A stretch of DNA of 25,533 bases from a virus. The notes under the pieces were generated by a model. The model saw only the letters and a list, made by a program, of their open reading frames with translations, ran no database searches and was not told where the DNA came from. The position numbers were made by a program, and so were the translations under genes. Location: positions 1 to 25,533 of IMG/VR virus record IMGVR_UViG_3300011013_002778, one strand, 5' to 3'. Shown in pieces: positions 691 to 25,533 of this stretch (the stretch's first letter is position 1; each line of letters begins with the position of its first letter).

Positions 691-869
691 TTTAATTCTT
701 TGCTTTTGAGAATTTCTCTGAGTTGAAAACTTATGTTTTCGTCCTTAATAGTTGTTATAAATATAGTGTTATCCACGATGTCCGTGACTGTGCCTGTGTA
801 GAAAACAAAACCTTTCTCTGATTCTGGATTCTTGATCTTGAATATATATTTTTTATCTGTTAGAAACAT
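684..869 (-). CDS. Small beta-barrel-like protein (61 aa)
   Basis: The sequence alternates hydrophobic and polar residues (YIFKIKNP, FVFYTGTVTDI, TIFITTIKDE, ISFQLREI), the pattern of a small SH3- or Sm-like beta barrel of five strands. Its ATG overlaps the thermosome stop as TAATG, so it is translationally coupled to the chaperonin and is the last gene of that operon. No catalytic motif is visible. An RNA-binding or chaperonin-accessory role would be guesswork; I do not recognise the family with confidence. Confidence 0.7.
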   Translation of the reverse strand: MFLTDKKYIFKIKNPESEKGFVFYTGTVTDIVDNTIFITTIKDENISFQLREILKSKELND

Positions 870-2383
870 TACTCTGTTCGCCCCTGCAATATATATTTAA
901 TTCTTAATACATTATTCGCATACTCAGTAGCTGTTGTGTATATAGATCTTTTAAGTTCTAATGGCTCTAAGACATCGGTTAAGTTTGTTACTTCTGCATC
1001 CTCTACATTAATACCATAGTCTTTGTCCTTGTTATATCTCATCTTGCCTAAGGCTGTAAGTTTTTGCATTCCTGCACTCTGTGCCAATAACTTAGGGATA
1101 TATTCTAAGGCACTTGCATATTTTTCTATAATTGCCTGATAGTTGCCGTTTTCTATTGTTTTAGCGTATTCTCGCAAGTCATAAGCTAGTTTTACTTCTA
1201 TTACGCCACCACCTAAGACATATTGTTTGTATTTCCTTATTGTTTTTATTACACCTAAGGCATCGTTTATGCCCCTCTCATATTCGTCTTGGTTAAGCTT
1301 ATTACTTCCACCTATTACTATTGTTACAGCTTTTGTATTGCCCTCTATTACTATATATCTTTCATCTGCATATTCTTTTATATATGCTCGCTCTACAATA
1401 AGAATGTCGTCTTTCCTAGCTGTGTCTATGTTTTTGACAATTGTGCCTTTACCCTTGCTTAGAATTTCTAGGTCTTCCTTTGGTACGTTTCTAACTGCTA
1501 AGATATTGTTTCTGGCGAAATAATCTAAGGCATAATCGTGTATATTCCTTTGACATATAACCACATTTGCTCCGAGTTCTTTTATCTTCTTTGCTTTGGC
1601 TATTACTGTGTCTTTTTCCATTTCAATTAAGTTGTTGTATTGGTTAACTCCAGAGATGTCTATTTTCATATCTAAAGCAGGATTTACCAATTCTAAGGCA
1701 TCATCTAAGAGAATTACTTTGGCTTTTTTTATATCCTCTGGCATTTTGTTAAGTGGAGAATTTACATCTAAAACTAAGCCTTCCACTAATTCTGTGTTTG
1801 AGACGCTTCCTGTTTTTGGTTTTAATTTCCTAATCTGATTTAAATCGCCATCTGTTTTTATTACTGCATCAACACAAATATTATAAATAGATTCTAACCC
1901 TTCAGAGTTCTTGCCTGTTAAGGTTGTTTTTACAAAGTTTTTAAGAGCTACTTTGTCATTTGTGTCTATCTCTTTTGAATATCTTTCTAATAATTCGTCT
2001 GTTTTTTGTAGTGCTATTTTATAACCTTTTGTTATTGTTACAGTATCAACGCCTTCTTCTTGCTTTAGCTCTAACCCGTACTGACATAGTTTGCCTGCAA
2101 TTACAGTCATACTTGTTGTGCCGTCTCCAACCCTGTCTGCGAGTATATTTGCACTTTCTACAAGAGACTGGATTATTGGATTTGTTATATTTAAGTTTGT
2201 TAAAATAGTTGCACCATCGTTACTTGTAATGCTGTCTCCTATATTATTTACAACTAGAACATCTGCACCTTTGGGTCCAAGTGTTTGTCCTATAATATTA
2301 GACACTTTTATAACATTTATTACATTTTCTGTTAAGGCATCTAAACCTTGTGCTTGCACATTAGGTTGGTTGTTATTTGCCAT
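869..2383 (-). CDS. Virus-encoded group II chaperonin (thermosome subunit)
   Basis: An ATP-driven protein-folding ring subunit of the thermosome/CCT type. Visible hallmarks: TLGPKGAD at 34-41, SNDGATIL at 54-61, GDGTTS at 86-91, the apical GANVVICQRNIHDYALDY at 271-288, NDA at 373-375 (position of the second catalytic Asp) and GGGVIEVKLA at 391-400. All ATP-site signatures remain, so it is probably active. At 504 residues it is shorter than the usual roughly 540, with an abbreviated N terminus, compressed loops between about 315 and 365, and no glycine/methionine-rich C-terminal tail. Its start has GAGGTGAT upstream. It sits after the fibre and membrane genes in the late region, suggesting it folds capsid or fibre proteins, either alone or mixed with host subunits. 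The divergence argues against recent capture from a host. Confidence 0.95.
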   Translation of the reverse strand: MANNNQPNVQAQGLDALTENVINVIKVSNIIGQTLGPKGADVLVVNNIGDSITSNDGATILTNLNITNPIIQSLVESANILADRVGDGTTSMTVIAGKLCQYGLELKQEEGVDTVTITKGYKIALQKTDELLERYSKEIDTNDKVALKNFVKTTLTGKNSEGLESIYNICVDAVIKTDGDLNQIRKLKPKTGSVSNTELVEGLVLDVNSPLNKMPEDIKKAKVILLDDALELVNPALDMKIDISGVNQYNNLIEMEKDTVIAKAKKIKELGANVVICQRNIHDYALDYFARNNILAVRNVPKEDLEILSKGKGTIVKNIDTARKDDILIVERAYIKEYADERYIVIEGNTKAVTIVIGGSNKLNQDEYERGINDALGVIKTIRKYKQYVLGGGVIEVKLAYDLREYAKTIENGNYQAIIEKYASALEYIPKLLAQSAGMQKLTALGKMRYNKDKDYGINVEDAEVTNLTDVLEPLELKRSIYTTATEYANNVLRIKYILQGRTE

Positions 2384-4794: not shown

Positions 4795-5628
4795 CTATAT
4801 TATTAACCAATTTACTCCATCAGAGTATATTGTAACACTACCATAATCACTGCTTATTGTTAATGTTTCTGAACCATCAATTGTCTCACTACCTTCGGTA
4901 TTTATAGTTATATTATTCGCACCTGCATTACCACTTGCATCTTTTATTACTATTGTTCTGCCACTTGCTACTTGAGAACTCGGCAAGGTTATAGTTGTTG
5001 GGCCTGTGCTTGTATAAGTAACATTTAGTATATCATCGCCATTCACTAAGCTATAAGTTGCAGAATTAATTGTTGTTATGTTCCTCCAACGACCACCTTT
5101 TGTAGATAATCCACCATCTTTGTCAAAATATGCTTTCTCTACATCTGAATTTTGAATACTTACTATTTTTGCCCCTGGAGTTGTTAGGGTGTAGTAAGCT
5201 TTCAAAATTAGACCTATTGCAGTAGCATCATCGTGGTCAGTCCCCTGCATTGTTAGTGGTAAGGGATTACTACCCCAAGCAGAGACTTTTGCACCAGAGG
5301 CATATATTGAATCTCCTGTAATTGACCCATAAGTAGTTATTTTACCGTCTTTATCTATTGATACTTTTTCTACACCATTATTCCGTATACTTAACAACAG
5401 TGAGCCTGAAGCTGTATAATTATATAATGTGTCTACAATTAGACTTATTGCTGTTACCCCATTTGGTTGGTCTCCTCTTAATGTTGCTGCAGTTCCTGAA
5501 CTCGCCGCAAATAAACCATTTGAAGCATAGAAACTTCCTGCTGTAATATCTTCACTTGTGGTATTACCAATCTCAGTGACTTTTTGTAAGTCTGGTATTT
5601 TTTTTAATCGCCCGTTATTTAAATCCAT
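4795..5628 (-). CDS. Tail fibre protein with tandem beta repeats
   Basis: A 277-residue fibre-like protein. Residues about 29-104 and 105-180 are two diverged copies of one module, both with [F/I]YAS, a TAI-L-I core, a SI-N-VEK segment and [I/F]DKDG. The DKDG motif is typical of head-fibre and tail-fibre repeats. The C-terminal part (about 185-277) has the pattern common to many phage fibres: a strand-rich region with TITLPSS, GRTIVIKDASGNAGANNITI, IDGSETLTI and a terminal DGVNWLII. It probably trimerises. It lies directly downstream of another virion protein gene and has a strong site GAGGTGGT. Confidence 0.8.
   Translation of the reverse strand: MDLNNGRLKKIPDLQKVTEIGNTTSEDITAGSFYASNGLFAASSGTAATLRGDQPNGVTAISLIVDTLYNYTASGSLLLSIRNNGVEKVSIDKDGKITTYGSITGDSIYASGAKVSAWGSNPLPLTMQGTDHDDATAIGLILKAYYTLTTPGAKIVSIQNSDVEKAYFDKDGGLSTKGGRWRNITTINSATYSLVNGDDILNVTYTSTGPTTITLPSSQVASGRTIVIKDASGNAGANNITINTEGSETIDGSETLTISSDYGSVTIYSDGVNWLII
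5089..5544 (-). repeat. Two tandem 75-residue modules in a fibre gene
   Basis: SFYAS (residues 32-36) and SIYAS (107-111) are 75 residues apart; IDKDG (91-95) and FDKDG (168-172) are 77 apart; and VEK recurs at about 86 and 163. The copies are diverged at DNA level, so this is an old duplication of a fibre module. Confidence 0.65.
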
Positions 5629-5638
5629 TTATACCACC

Positions 5639-6235
5639 TCACTTCGCAAATAGTCTATATGCACTATCTGTTCCACTGTGTGTTATTCTTATACTATCCA
5701 CATCTAATCCTGTTAGGTCTAACGTCTCGCCATTTTTCATTGTGAATTGTGTTCCAAATGTAGAACCATCTTCGCTTAATTCTATTAATATATCGCCTGA
5801 TCCATCACAAACAAGATAACCTGTGCTTGCATTCCTTCCAAGATTAGAATTAATATCAATTGTTACTGGGCTATCTGCTGCTGTGAATGAACTGTCTTCT
5901 GCTGGATAATAACCAGGTCCATAACTTTCTCCTGCTATGTGTGTGTATTGATAACCATTTTCATCAACCAAAGCATCTTTTGGATTTGTACCATCTGTGA
6001 AAGCAGCAACATCAACGTTTAGATCGCCACCTAAATTTAATGTTGCACCGTCTAAAATAGTTTTAAGACGCCCCTTTGAATCAAACTGAAAAGTAGAAAA
6101 CTCACCATCTGCTAATGTAATATCAGATGAGTTGTATTCGCCACCAACAACTAAACCTAAGTTGTCATACCTAGTGGCTCCTTGTCTAAAACCAGACCTT
6201 CTTAATATGTCTTGGTAAGAGTTTTGTTCTGCCAT
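5639..6235 (-). CDS. Virion structural protein, fibre-associated (198 aa)
   Basis: A beta-rich Asp/Gly/Ser/Thr-rich protein starting MAEQNSYQDILRRSGFRQGA. Its C terminus (ILIELSEDGSTFGTQFTMKN, LDVDSIRITHSGTDSAYRLF) is typical of a small beta-sandwich that reports virion decoration or fibre attachment. I chose ATG 6235 because GGAGGTG (6242-6248) lies at ideal distance; a GTG nine bases earlier is part of that binding site. It is the first gene after an unusually structured leader (6236-6349). The exact role is unknown; it may connect the fibres to the tail. Confidence 0.7.
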   Translation of the reverse strand: MAEQNSYQDILRRSGFRQGATRYDNLGLVVGGEYNSSDITLADGEFSTFQFDSKGRLKTILDGATLNLGGDLNVDVAAFTDGTNPKDALVDENGYQYTHIAGESYGPGYYPAEDSSFTAADSPVTIDINSNLGRNASTGYLVCDGSGDILIELSEDGSTFGTQFTMKNGETLDLTGLDVDSIRITHSGTDSAYRLFAK

Positions 6236-6236
6236 A

Positions 6237-6273
6237 ATAGACACCTCCGTGTGTAAGTCTGTGCTGTGTCTAT
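6237..6273 (-). promoter_or_regulatory. Leader hairpin overlapping the ribosome binding site
   Basis: In the transcript, ATAGACAC (6273-6266) can pair perfectly with GTGTCTAT (6244-6237), 8 bp with a 21-base loop. Part of the Shine-Dalgarno GGAGGTG (6248-6242) is in the stem, so folding would limit ribosome access to the gene at 5639. The upstream arm plus the next two bases (ATAGACACAG) recurs in the leader of the protease gene at 18607. Confidence 0.5.
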
Positions 6274-6289
6274 CTCTGATTTAATTTAC

Positions 6290-6321
6290 AATAATAATCT
6301 ACAATAGTAGAAATTATTATT
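6290..6321 (-). ncRNA. Leader hairpin containing a Cas12a-type CRISPR repeat sequence
   Basis: The minus strand at 6315-6297 reads AATTTCTACTATTGTAGAT, which has the invariant parts of the processed Cas12a (type V-A) direct repeat: AATTTCTAC, a short loop and GTAGAT, with the TCTAC/GTAGA stem. Flanking AATAATAA and TTATTATT extend the pairing with a 2-base bulge. The predicted start of transcription from the TATA box at 6337-6350 falls close to 6321, so the RNA would begin with this hairpin. Only one copy exists, so it is not an array. It may mimic a CRISPR repeat or act as a protective leader structure. Confidence 0.5.
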
Positions 6322-6361
6322 TATATATAGGTTTCTGATATTTATATATTTATCTTTTTAA
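6322..6361 (-). promoter_or_regulatory. Late-type promoter of the fibre operon
   Basis: The minus strand has a TATA box in ATATATAAATATC (about 6337-6350), then ATCAGAAACC and TATATATA. The same arrangement occurs before the portal and protease genes. The block overlaps the stop of the 27-residue membrane peptide gene, and a start about 25 bases downstream would leave a leader of about 85 bases before ATG 6235. Confidence 0.6.
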
Positions 6362-6444: not shown

Positions 6445-7107
6445 CTATTTTATTTTTTTATAAAATATCCATCTAAAAATACTATAATTATCTTTTAAGA
6501 TCTGCATATCTTTTTTAAGATATTCTGTTTTCCTGTGCCATGCCTGAATAATTGGCTCACATTTCGGGAATAATAATCTGTGAAAGTATAAAGCAATCCA
6601 TGTTAGGATATTCTCTTTCTTACCATTACCCTTAAAGCAATCTTCGGGATATATCATTGGGCATATTGTTCCTAATCGATTTAATGAAAAATAATTCTGA
6701 CCAACGAAAAAGGCATTAGGGAACAGAAATACTGCTAACTTGAGTTTCTTATTGTTTTTATCACAATATTCTTTTGCAAGCTTTACCCTGTTTGTTATTT
6801 GCTTAGTTTTGAATATATTCTTATAATCAGATTTTATATACCTTATATAATCTAACATGATATTCGCTTCTTTGGAGTATTTTCTCACACGGTTAAGATA
6901 TTCTTTATCAGTTATATATCCAGAAACTATAACAATATAAGGTATTTTGTTCGCTTGTTTTATCTTTTTGCAATAATCAAAAACTTCTTTATCATTTTTC
7001 GGGAGATATTTATTATCAAAGGTTATAGAAAGATAAATTTCTTTAAAGTTTTTGTAATTCTTTGGATCTTGCTCTCGGTTATTCCATACTACCCATATTC
7101 CTCTCAT
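6445..7107 (-). CDS. Glycoside-hydrolase-like TIM-barrel protein, candidate endolysin or tail depolymerase
   Basis: The 220-residue protein resembles the glycosyl-hydrolase-like TIM-barrel families (DUF4015/GHL type). N-terminal strand RGIWVVW; MLDYIRY near residues 84-90 with Asp86 at the strand end; KLAVFLFPN; VGQNYFSL; the typical CPMIYPEDC (149-157); and PIIQAW (185-190) in the usual order. That order and spacing, not a search, is the evidence. It is shorter than typical members, as if the barrel is trimmed. Start chosen at ATG 7107 after AAGTGAG; an upstream GTG is part of the site. No signal peptide is seen. It lies between a fibre gene and a membrane peptide, so it may degrade host glycan for entry or lysis. 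Confidence 0.6.
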   Translation of the reverse strand: MRGIWVVWNNREQDPKNYKNFKEIYLSITFDNKYLPKNDKEVFDYCKKIKQANKIPYIVIVSGYITDKEYLNRVRKYSKEANIMLDYIRYIKSDYKNIFKTKQITNRVKLAKEYCDKNNKKLKLAVFLFPNAFFVGQNYFSLNRLGTICPMIYPEDCFKGNGKKENILTWIALYFHRLLFPKCEPIIQAWHRKTEYLKKDMQILKDNYSIFRWIFYKKIK

Positions 7108-18635: not shown

Positions 18636-18650
18636 ATACTATATCTACTA

Positions 18651-18684
18651 TATATAGGTTTTTGATATTTATAAGTTTTTCTAT
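18651..18684 (-). promoter_or_regulatory. Late-type promoter of the protease-capsid operon
   Basis: ATAGAAAAACTTATAAATAT (TATA box 18665-18674) followed by CAAAAACC and TATATATAG on the minus strand. It is nearly identical to the promoter before the portal gene and similar to that at 6322. It overlaps the last codons of the zinc-ribbon gene at 18681. Confidence 0.65.
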
Positions 18685-21622: not shown

Positions 21623-21636
21623 ATTACCACCATAAA

Positions 21637-21667
21637 TATATGTTTTTGATATATATAAGTTTTTCTA
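21637..21667 (-). promoter_or_regulatory. Late-type promoter of the portal operon
   Basis: ATAGAAAAACTTATATATAT (TATA box 21649-21658) then CAAAAACATATAT on the minus strand, overlapping the end of the terminase gene. A start about 25 bases downstream leaves a leader of roughly 10 bases. Same block as at 18651 and 6322. Confidence 0.65.
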
Positions 21668-23434: not shown

Positions 23435-23584
23435 TTACTCACTTAGTTTTACTAATCTTTCTATTTCTGACTCTTTGTCTTTGATCTTATCTTTTAAATA
23501 CTTATTCTCTATATATAAATTTATTAATTCTATTTTTAACTGTTCTGGCTTTTTGCTTATCAGTTTGTTTATTTCTTCATTCAT
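23435..23584 (-). CDS. Small coiled-coil protein (49 aa)
   Basis: ATG 23584 opens a 49-residue charged helix (MNEEINKLISKKPEQLKIEL and onward) with heptad-like Leu/Ile spacing and a C-terminal IERLVKLSE. Its start overlaps the stop of the decarboxylase gene and its stop falls 2 bases before the terminase start, behind AGGTG. Position and coupling make it real. It might dimerise and help the small terminase; the function is unknown. Confidence 0.7.
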   Translation of the reverse strand: MNEEINKLISKKPEQLKIELINLYIENKYLKDKIKDKESEIERLVKLSE

Positions 23585-23990
23585 TTACTCGCACCTCACT
23601 AATATGTGTTTTTGATCCATCTGGGTTTAACTTATAAACTTCTTTGTTTTCTTCTAAACCTGTGCCTCTTTCTAATATGATTAAATTACCCGCTTTAATT
23701 GGCAACTTGCTAATTATATATTCTATATACTTATTTACACCTATTTTACCACATGTGAAATAATCTAAAAATATTCCTTTCTCCTCTGGATATGTATGAA
23801 TACTCGCATGGCTCTCTGATATTAATATATTTAAACTGTACCCATCTGGTTTAAAGTAATGTTCTAACTCACCCAAGATTGTAGCACCTGTTTTTTTAAT
23901 TGCAACTTTAATTATTTGCTTTAATTTTACAGGAGGCATATTTTTATTTAATTTAACATCTATAATTGCGTGCTTCCCTTTAAACTCCAT
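23577..23990 (-). CDS. speD: S-adenosylmethionine decarboxylase homologue (SpeD-like)
   Basis: A pyruvoyl-dependent decarboxylase of 137 residues, the normal small size. All key residues are present: self-cleavage between Glu59 and Ser60 (SESHASIHTYPE), Ser52, His65 and Cys80 (DYFTCG) in the spacings known for the Thermotoga enzyme (Ser55, Ser63, His68, Cys83). It would give decarboxylated AdoMet for spermidine, or, as reported for some phage relatives, act on ornithine or arginine. Its start overlaps the methyltransferase end by 11 bases. Polyamines would help DNA packaging, and AdoMet use could affect host methylation; both are inferences. Confidence 0.9.
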   Translation of the reverse strand: MEFKGKHAIIDVKLNKNMPPVKLKQIIKVAIKKTGATILGELEHYFKPDGYSLNILISESHASIHTYPEEKGIFLDYFTCGKIGVNKYIEYIISKLPIKAGNLIILERGTGLEENKEVYKLNPDGSKTHISEVRVNE

Positions 23991-25266
23991 TTTTCCACCT
24001 TAAATATTCTTTTATATCATCGCCTTTATAAAATACTAATATGTTTTGATGCATTCTCCCAACCTTCATACCTTTTTCCCAAGACCTTCTTGCCCTTATT
24101 GGCAATGTACCTATTGCATTTACTAATATAATTTCATTATAATATTTTAAACCTGCATTTTTACACCATTCTATCATCTTTGGTATAAAACCAATATATT
24201 CGCCTGTTGGGTTTCTTACTTCTGATATGACAAATACAGCAAACCTATTATCTTTTAATTTCTTTACACCTTTTGTTATACTTTCTTTTAAAACCTTATC
24301 AAAATCTTCTATATTCATATTACTAACATCTTTTTCATCTTCGCTATAATGTTCCAAAGTATAATAAGGCGGGCAACTAAATAATAAATCAATACTATTA
24401 TCTTTAATGTATTTATCCATATTAAGTATATCATCGGCATACAAATTTATATCTTTTAACTCTAATTGTTTTATTTTTTTATTTGTTGCATTAACTTGTT
24501 CTTCTCTTAATTCTACACCTTCTAGTTTATATCCATCTAAACCTGCTACTAAATTAGGTTCCATATCACCAGCATACATATTAAATATTTTGCCATTCTT
24601 TTTACAAAACCAATTAAATAAAACTTTTGAAAGTAACGGGTCAAATAAACTAACGCCTCCATTTATATTGTGTATAATAGTATCCGAAGACTTAGATAAT
24701 TTACTTTCTCTTGTTTCAGTAGTTACCCCAAATAAATCATAATATTTTTGTCTTTTTTCTCGCCATAAACCAGATTTTGTATCTATAACACTAAATGGAG
24801 GGACTATATAATCTTCTGCTAAACTCCCTTTTTTAAATTCGCCTAAATCAAATTGTTCCTTTTTTAATTCTGCAACCAAAATATTTAATTCTTTTTCATT
24901 AAACCCTGTTAAGTCTAACATATTGTCTAATTTAAGTGTTTCTAATTGTGGCAACAAATATTCATTATTCCAACTGCTTAATTCAGCACTGCGGTTATCC
25001 ATAATTGCAAAGGCTTTGGCTTCCTTCTCATTCATATCAACAAAATGAACAGGAATTTTATTTATTCCTAATCGTTTGCAAGCAGAATATCTGCCATTGC
25101 CTACAAGAATTATTCTATCTTTATTACAAATAAGTGGGTTTCTAAATCCAAATCGTTTTATGGATTTCATGATATTTTCTATATCATAATCAGTATGTTT
25201 CCTCGTGTTTGCTTCGTTTGGTTTTATACTATTTATATCAACTATTTCTATTTTATACTCACACAT
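23980..25266 (-). CDS. ParB-domain DNA methyltransferase (orphan)
   Basis: The 428-residue protein combines an N-terminal ParB/Spo0J-like domain (IVDINSIKPNEANTRKH; VGNGRYSACKRLGINKIPVH) with a C-terminal amino-methyltransferase domain. The linker has PPFSVIDTKSGLWREKRQKY, and the MTase part shows FDPLLSKVLFNWFC, a modified AdoMet motif NMYAGDM (usual DPFAGG), ELREEQ and the catalytic SCPPYY (297-302), as in N4-cytosine or N6-adenine methylases. No restriction enzyme is adjacent. It may mark viral DNA against host restriction. I chose ATG 25266 because the earlier GTG is part of the GGTGAT site. It precedes the decarboxylase. Confidence 0.9.
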   Translation of the reverse strand: MCEYKIEIVDINSIKPNEANTRKHTDYDIENIMKSIKRFGFRNPLICNKDRIILVGNGRYSACKRLGINKIPVHFVDMNEKEAKAFAIMDNRSAELSSWNNEYLLPQLETLKLDNMLDLTGFNEKELNILVAELKKEQFDLGEFKKGSLAEDYIVPPFSVIDTKSGLWREKRQKYYDLFGVTTETRESKLSKSSDTIIHNINGGVSLFDPLLSKVLFNWFCKKNGKIFNMYAGDMEPNLVAGLDGYKLEGVELREEQVNATNKKIKQLELKDINLYADDILNMDKYIKDNSIDLLFSCPPYYTLEHYSEDEKDVSNMNIEDFDKVLKESITKGVKKLKDNRFAVFVISEVRNPTGEYIGFIPKMIEWCKNAGLKYYNEIILVNAIGTLPIRARRSWEKGMKVGRMHQNILVFYKGDDIKEYLRWKNGV

Positions 25267-25271
25267 ATAAA

Positions 25272-25454
25272 TCACCTTACAAAAGACATTGCAGTGGTTA
25301 TCTCTTTATATATTATTTTTCTTATTCGCTCGTAATCAATAGGCTCTTGGCTAAGAAGGTTTCTTATTGCTATGTTTATATTTGGATTTAATTCTTTTAG
25401 TTTGTTATAAATATCTACATCTATCCTTGTTACCTTTGTTGTTATACTACTCAT
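25272..25454 (-). CDS. Ribbon-helix-helix-like small protein (60 aa)
   Basis: Start at ATG 25454 (the GTG nine bases earlier belongs to the binding site AGTGAT). MSSITTKVTRIDVDIYNKLK fits an RHH beta strand and first helix, continued by NINIAIRNLLSQE as the second helix. It probably binds DNA and regulates. Its stop is part of the methyltransferase ribosome binding site. Only about 20 bases separate it from the tRNA gene, leaving little room for its own promoter. Confidence 0.6.
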   Translation of the reverse strand: MSSITTKVTRIDVDIYNKLKELNPNINIAIRNLLSQEPIDYERIRKIIYKEITTAMSFVR

Positions 25455-25475: not shown

Positions 25476-25533
25476 TAGTGGAGATTGGATTTGAACCAAC
25501 GACCTTCGGGTTATGAGCCCGACGGGCACTCCA
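25476..25533 (-). tRNA. Initiator tRNA-Met (CAU), 5' part beyond the window
   Basis: From the right edge on the minus strand: end of the D arm, anticodon arm TCGGG-CTCATAA-CCCGA, variable loop AGGTC, T arm GTTGG-TTCAAAT-CCAAT and acceptor strand CTCCACT with A73 at 25476. The GGG/CCC pairs in the anticodon stem are the initiator signature, and T at position 72 implies the A1:U72 pair of archaeal initiators. CCA is not encoded. About 17 bases of the 5' end are missing. The 3' end faces the viral genes, so it may mark an attachment site, or it may be a viral tRNA. Confidence 0.85.

What the first reader, a model, noticed from the sequence alone, without database searches (positions are those of the whole stretch)
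6290..6321. Solitary Cas12a-type CRISPR repeat at the 5' end of the fibre transcript
The minus strand has AATTTCTACTATTGTAGAT, the conserved processed repeat of Cas12a systems, in a leader whose predicted start site lies almost at the hairpin. Roughly, with AT-rich composition, such a match is not expected by chance in a window of this size. Known phage-encoded solitary repeat units act as RNA anti-CRISPRs that tie up Cas proteins. Type V-A occurs in some archaea (for example Methanomethylophilus/Methanoplasma relatives), so the virus may decoy Cas12a. Flanking AT arms extend the hairpin, so an ordinary leader stem is the alternative.
Basis: partly seen in the sequence, partly recalled or inferred. 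Interest (0 to 1): 0.78.

Follow-up and report, generated by a model that had tools for sequence, protein, structure and literature searches.

The report
Cas12a crRNA handle in archaeal virus
A virus of archaea carries, just ahead of a tail-fibre gene, one exact copy of the RNA handle that the CRISPR nuclease Cas12a grips, most likely a decoy that ties the nuclease up, as some bacteriophages are already known to do.

Summary
Window 6315-6297 (minus) is AATTTCTACTATTGTAGAT, the exact processed handle of type V-A crRNAs; a Markov model of the window predicts 2e-6 such matches. It lies in the leader of a tail-fibre operon, in a tailed virus whose capsid and portal proteins match only archaeal viruses. 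The same 19-mer occurs in 54 other viral contigs, nearly all solitary and mostly outside ORFs; a stem-permuted control of equal composition gives 2 (one family). In bacteriophages the handle often begins 0-9 nt after a promoter -7 box and can precede virion genes, so this layout has precedents. An Aenigmatarchaeota genome has Cas12a, Cas4, Cas1 and arrays with the identical handle, so archaeal targets exist. Best explanation: an RNA anti-CRISPR (Racr-like solitary repeat) at the 5' end of a structural mRNA. Confidence stays near 0.6 because the host is unknown, no relative covers the leader, and a second TATA-like box, if used, would start the RNA inside the handle. Racrs against V-A are already published, so this is a variant of a known kind: archaeal, handle-only, in an mRNA leader.

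The parts
6297..6315 (-). Cas12a crRNA handle core AATTTCTACTATTGTAGAT (solitary repeat unit, 3' part of a V-A repeat only)
   Evidence: exact match, once in window; identical to repeats in many V-A arrays; Markov expectation 1.9e-6
6288..6320 (-). extended hairpin: AT arms AUAAUAAU / AUUAUUAU around the handle stem UCUAC-UAUU-GUAGA
   Evidence: RNA fold of the leader, z -3.85; core stem pair probability 0.97-1.0
6339..6348 (-). upstream TATA-like element T1 (TATATAAATA), predicts start at about 6321-6315
   Evidence: sequence; the T1 position is shared by all three copies of the promoter module; spacing rule from general knowledge
6322..6329 (-). downstream TATATATA element T2; if it were the TATA box the start would be near 6300, inside the handle
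   Evidence: sequence; in the portal copy T2 is too close to the ATG to serve as TATA box
6322..6341 (-). shared viral promoter-like module ATATCARAAACCTATATATA, fibre operon copy
   Evidence: 3 copies in window against 0.02 expected
18649..18668 (-). same module upstream of the prohead protease gene; this leader has no handle
21633..21652 (-). same module (2 mismatches) upstream of the portal gene; no handle
6237..6273 (-). second leader hairpin AUAGACAC/GUGUCUAU that covers part of the Shine-Dalgarno sequence GGAGG (6248-6244)
   Evidence: fold
5639..6235 (-). first gene of the fibre operon (ATG at 6235, 198 aa), unknown family
   Evidence: ORF list; no PHROG match
4795..5628 (-). baseplate / tail-fibre-like protein, next gene of the operon
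   Evidence: phrog_20556 and phrog_972

Best explanation
It is a virus-encoded mimic of the Cas12a crRNA handle, carried at or near the 5' end of the tail-fibre operon mRNA of an archaeal tailed virus. Proposed working: transcription from the upstream TATA box begins at about 6321-6315; the RNA folds into the handle; host Cas12a binds it (and may trim up to about 5 nt 5' of it) and is held on a viral transcript. The sequence that follows cannot direct Cas12a to its own locus, because AGAT, not a TTTV PAM, precedes it on the viral DNA. Placing the handle at the very 5' end costs the mRNA nothing, so one abundant transcript can serve both as decoy and as message. Shown: sequence identity, solitary state, non-chance enrichment in viruses, placement right after promoters and ahead of virion genes in other viruses, existence of archaeal V-A with the same handle. 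Inferred: the start site, Cas12a binding, inhibition, and that the actual host has V-A.
For: Exact 19-nt match, 2e-6 expected. Core found in more than 120 genome stretches, many of them arrays with 63-66 nt spacing. 54 viral contigs carry it, nearly all once, about 35 of 56 sites outside any ORF of 60 aa or more; a stem-permuted control of equal expected frequency gives 2 contigs, one family, coding. In 42 non-redundant viral sites the -7 box TAnnTTTG ends 0-9 nt upstream of the handle 9 times, against about 0.6 per 10-nt bin elsewhere. Handles lie 6-32 nt ahead of portal, major capsid, scaffold/decoration and adaptor genes in L152, L170, L157, L174. Archaeal identity: capsid matches only haloarchaeal and Methanofastidiosa viruses, portal only the latter. 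Aenigmatarchaeota contig with HerA and a cas12a-cas4-cas1 locus and the same repeat. Three V-A Racrs inhibit Moraxella Cas12a; a Racr can share an RNA with a coding gene (PMC10651486).
Against: Host unknown; only 1 of 145 sampled genomes of the Aenigmatarchaeota phylum has Cas12a over the family cut-off or this repeat, and the virus capsid has no convincing relative there. None of 1038 V-A spacers matches the window convincingly. No relative covers the leader, so conservation is untested. TATA box T2 would start the RNA inside the handle. Only the 3' 19-27 nt of a 36-nt repeat is present. A late structural operon is an odd place for early counter-defence. The AT arms could pair in preference to the Cas12a pseudoknot.
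Confidence: 0.6

Rival explanations
1. An ordinary leader stem that stabilises or regulates the fibre mRNA and matches the Cas12a handle by coincidence.
For: The leader is structured and AT-rich with long outer arms; a second hairpin covers the Shine-Dalgarno, so structure in this leader has a regulatory flavour; chance matches do exist, e.g. 22 nt inside an ORF in L002; host V-A unproven.
Against: 2e-6 expected; 54 against 2 in viral contigs for a hairpin control with the same loop and flanks; the 5' U asymmetry belongs to the Cas12a handle and is not needed in a plain stem; the sister leader with the same promoter (18668-18616) has no such stem.
Confidence: 0.24
2. A DNA operator: the near-palindrome at 6288-6320 binds a regulator at the promoter, and the RNA starts at about 6300 from TATA box T2.
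For: T2 has a good upstream purine-rich element and predicts a start at about 6300; the palindrome lies where a repressor would sit.
Against: The two arms differ by a 2-nt insertion, which breaks dyad symmetry for a dimeric DNA binder; the other two copies of the module have no such palindrome; in the portal copy T2 is too near the ATG to act as TATA box.
Confidence: 0.08
3. A working crRNA or Cas12a-responsive switch: the handle plus the following leader guides Cas12a to another element, or Cas12a binding controls fibre synthesis.
For: Virus-borne mini-arrays act in inter-virus conflict (PMC6858448); Cas12a binding would sit 61 nt from the start codon.
Against: There is no second repeat; the guide-like 24 nt is AT-rich and pairs with the upstream arm, and no prefix of it of 10 nt or more recurs in the window; no target known.
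Confidence: 0.08

Closest known systems
RNA anti-CRISPRs (Racrs) / solitary repeat units, including RacrVA1-3 (Camara-Wilpert et al. 2023, PMC10651486)
   Same: single virus-encoded CRISPR repeat mimic outside arrays, placed just downstream of a promoter; V-A members proven against Moraxella Cas12a; RacrIC1 shares a bicistronic RNA with a coding gene
   Different: here only the processed 3' part of the repeat is present (best match 27 of 36 nt), in the leader of a virion gene, in an archaeal virus, with AT arms extending the stem; activity untested
Virus-borne mini-CRISPR arrays (Sulfolobales viruses, PMC6858448; Bathyarchaeia Chiyouvirus, PMC10848311)
   Same: archaeal viruses that exploit host CRISPR machinery with host-type repeats
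   Different: mini-arrays have two or more repeats and a spacer; here there is one repeat and no identifiable spacer
Type V-A (Cas12a) crRNA handle of host arrays, e.g. Aenigmatarchaeota JAFGFG01
   Same: identical 19-nt core AATTTCTACTATTGTAGAT
   Different: host repeats are 36 nt (GTCTAGAAGCATGCTTT + core) in arrays next to cas genes

Membership tests
RNA anti-CRISPR (Racr) / solitary repeat unit | matches a known CRISPR repeat | tested here: met
   exact to 19-21 nt, best alignment 27 nt at 96% to V-A repeats
RNA anti-CRISPR (Racr) / solitary repeat unit | at least 90% coverage of the repeat and at least 41.1 bits (published SRUFinder criteria) | tested here: not met
   best hit 46.1 bits but 27 of 36 nt, 75% coverage, against 65 array consensus repeats; their repeat database was not available. 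This is a search filter, not a mechanism
RNA anti-CRISPR (Racr) / solitary repeat unit | solitary and intergenic, not part of an array or cas locus | tested here: met
   one copy in the window, no cas match among the ORFs tested, leader position
RNA anti-CRISPR (Racr) / solitary repeat unit | transcribed from an adjacent promoter | tested here: inconclusive
   T1 predicts a start just before the handle, T2 a start inside it
RNA anti-CRISPR (Racr) / solitary repeat unit | matching CRISPR subtype in the host | tested here: inconclusive
   host unknown; an archaeal genome with the matching V-A system exists
RNA anti-CRISPR (Racr) / solitary repeat unit | inhibits the cognate CRISPR-Cas system | not testable with these tools
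   needs an interference assay
Virus-borne mini-CRISPR array | two or more repeats flanking a spacer | tested here: not met
   no second copy within 3 mismatches

The most novel reading that the evidence does not exclude
Handle-first mRNAs: viruses of both bacteria and archaea have independently put a minimal, processed-size Cas12a handle at the 5' end of late virion-gene mRNAs, so that the most abundant viral transcripts double as Cas12a sponges without losing coding sequence; published full-repeat searches may have under-counted this class.
Probability: 0.35. Interest if true: 0.72.

Novelty: new variant of a known kind. Interest (0 to 1): 0.56.

Why it matters
If true, RNA mimicry of Cas12a crRNAs extends to archaeal tailed viruses and so to V-A systems in archaea, which appear rare. 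It also means a decoy can be written into the leader of a structural mRNA with as few as 19 nt, which makes such elements easy to miss and easy to evolve. The prediction is cheap to test with any Cas12a that uses this common repeat.

Tried and rejected
Relatives covering the leader: scans with the fibre protein, terminase, capsid alignment and tail-protein alignment found only L216 (58-60% identical), which stops before the leader. The promoter module is absent from other viral contigs. V-A spacers against the window: nothing above chance. Host from the chaperonin: 31-39% to all sampled Aenigmatarchaeota and a similar score to other archaeal thermosomes, not diagnostic. Capsid in the Aenigmatarchaeota phylum: none by single protein, one weak partial match by profile. 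Rfam: only a tRNA fragment at the window end. Mini-array: rejected, no second repeat. Direct repeat D1 at 6569-6592 (79%) lies in an ORF and lacks the stem; taken as chance.

Full report
Observation. The minus strand at 6315-6297 reads AATTTCTACTATTGTAGAT, once in the window. The first-order Markov expectation for both strands is 1.9e-6. The leader folds into the handle stem UCUAC-UAUU-GUAGA, extended by AT arms to 6320-6288, followed by a second hairpin that covers the Shine-Dalgarno; z-score -3.85. The handle ends 61 nt before the ATG at 6235.

What the sequence is. That genome has a Cas12a RuvC match at E 1.6e-105, and its contig carries a HerA-like ATPase, a 1291-aa Cas12a frame, Cas4-like and Cas1-like frames and the array (Cas4, Cas1 and HerA named by eye from the translations). 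Its repeat is GTCTAGAAGCATGCTTT followed by the exact core. Among 145 sampled genomes of that phylum it is the only one with this repeat or with Cas12a above the cut-off.

What the virus is. Capsid protein: the only matches among 50,697 phage records are Haloarcula viruses and a Methanofastidiosa virus; portal: only the Methanofastidiosa virus; terminase: best is Halogranum tailed virus 1. A group II chaperonin is also encoded. So it is most likely a tailed virus of archaea, host unknown.

Viral background. The 19-mer is in 54 other viral contigs, 52 of them with one copy; about 35 of 56 sites lie outside any ORF of 60 aa or more (counted by hand). A control with the stem letters permuted, the same loop and flanks and an equal expected frequency occurs in 2 contigs of one family, apparently in coding sequence. 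In 42 non-redundant sites the Bacteroidota -7 box TAnnTTTG ends 0-9 nt upstream of the handle 9 times, with 12 in the other 19 bins of 10 nt together, so these handles sit at predicted transcription starts. Some are followed by terminators (L124, L136, L138, L139, L140, L144, L149, L167), like stand-alone small RNAs. Others lie 6-32 nt ahead of virion genes: portal (L152), major head protein (L170), head scaffolding/decoration (L157), head-tail adaptor (L174). The window therefore fits a pattern seen in unrelated phages. Only 1 of 38 representative viral sites matches a full 36-nt repeat among those I could test; the rest hold just the 3' part, as here.

Promoter. Upstream of the handle lies TATAAATA-TCAGAAACC-TATATATA. 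The 20-nt module ATATCARAAACCTATATATA occurs three times in the window, at the fibre, protease and portal genes, against 0.02 expected. If the first box (T1) is the TATA box, the start falls at about 6321-6315 and the RNA begins with the handle hairpin. If the second (T2) is, the start is about 6300 and the handle is not transcribed whole. In the portal copy T2 is too near the start codon to work as TATA box, which favours T1 for the shared module, but this is inference. Read-through from the upstream gene would also transcribe the handle. The protease leader shares the promoter and an ATAGACACAG stem but no handle, so the handle is an addition to one leader rather than part of the promoter.

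Mechanism and rivals. A Cas12a decoy explains the exact core, the 5' U asymmetry, the lack of the upstream repeat half, the solitary state and the position. The sequence after the handle cannot direct Cas12a to its own locus, since AGAT, not TTTV, precedes it (general knowledge of Cas12a PAMs). A plain leader stem does not need the asymmetry or the core letters. An operator would not have a 2-nt asymmetry. A mini-array needs a second repeat. The main weaknesses are the unknown host, the absence of any relative that covers the leader, the ambiguous start site and the late position of the operon.

Known or new. Racrs including three V-A members are experimentally proven, solitary repeats often lie immediately downstream of a promoter, SRU-bearing viruses include archaeal ones, and RacrIC1 shares an RNA with a gene (PMC10651486). 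Archaeal viruses with mini-arrays are known (PMC6858448, PMC10848311). Searches of the held papers turned up none evidently about Cas12a handles in archaeal viruses, and none on V-A in Aenigmatarchaeota; this is absence in a partial library. SRUFinder asks for 90% coverage of the repeat and 41.1 bits; the window element reaches 75% coverage against the 65 repeats I could test, so handle-only units may be under-counted, though their repeat library may hold shorter entries.

Noticed in passing
L128, L136, L149, L138/L165 (bacteriophage contigs): Apparent compound solitary repeats: a type I-C-like repeat end (...GTGGATTGAAAC, in L138 GTGGATTAAAAC) lies shortly upstream of the V-A handle; in L136, L138 and L149 a terminator follows, so one small RNA may mimic two CRISPR types at once.
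   Followed up: partly
L126 (4613-4673), L133 (4628-4686): Two V-A handles only 40-42 nt apart, shorter than the 63-66 nt spacing of arrays: tandem decoys or minimal arrays with a roughly 22-nt spacer.
   Followed up: no
window 6322-6341, 18649-18668, 21633-21652 (minus): A tandem BRE/TATA-like module, ATATCARAAACCTATATATA, is repeated at three operon starts: a virus-specific promoter with no copy in other viral contigs scanned.
   Followed up: yes
window 6237-6273 (minus): A stem AUAGACAC/GUGUCUAU covers part of the Shine-Dalgarno of the fibre operon; the protease leader (18637-18610) has a related stem, suggesting translational control of late genes.
   Followed up: partly
window 869-2383 (minus): Full-length group II (thermosome-type) chaperonin in an archaeal tailed virus, 31-39% identical to archaeal homologues.
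   Followed up: partly
window 23577-23990 and 23980-25275 (minus): S-adenosylmethionine decarboxylase next to a ParB-domain / DNA methyltransferase fusion in a viral genome.
   Followed up: no
G001 contig C5, locus L213: Complete-looking type V-A locus (Cas12a 1291 aa, Cas4-like, Cas1-like, array) in an Aenigmatarchaeota genome; no paper on it found in the held library.
   Followed up: partly
window 25476-25533 (minus): 3' part of a tRNA (anticodon looks like CAT) cut by the end of the contig.
   Followed up: no
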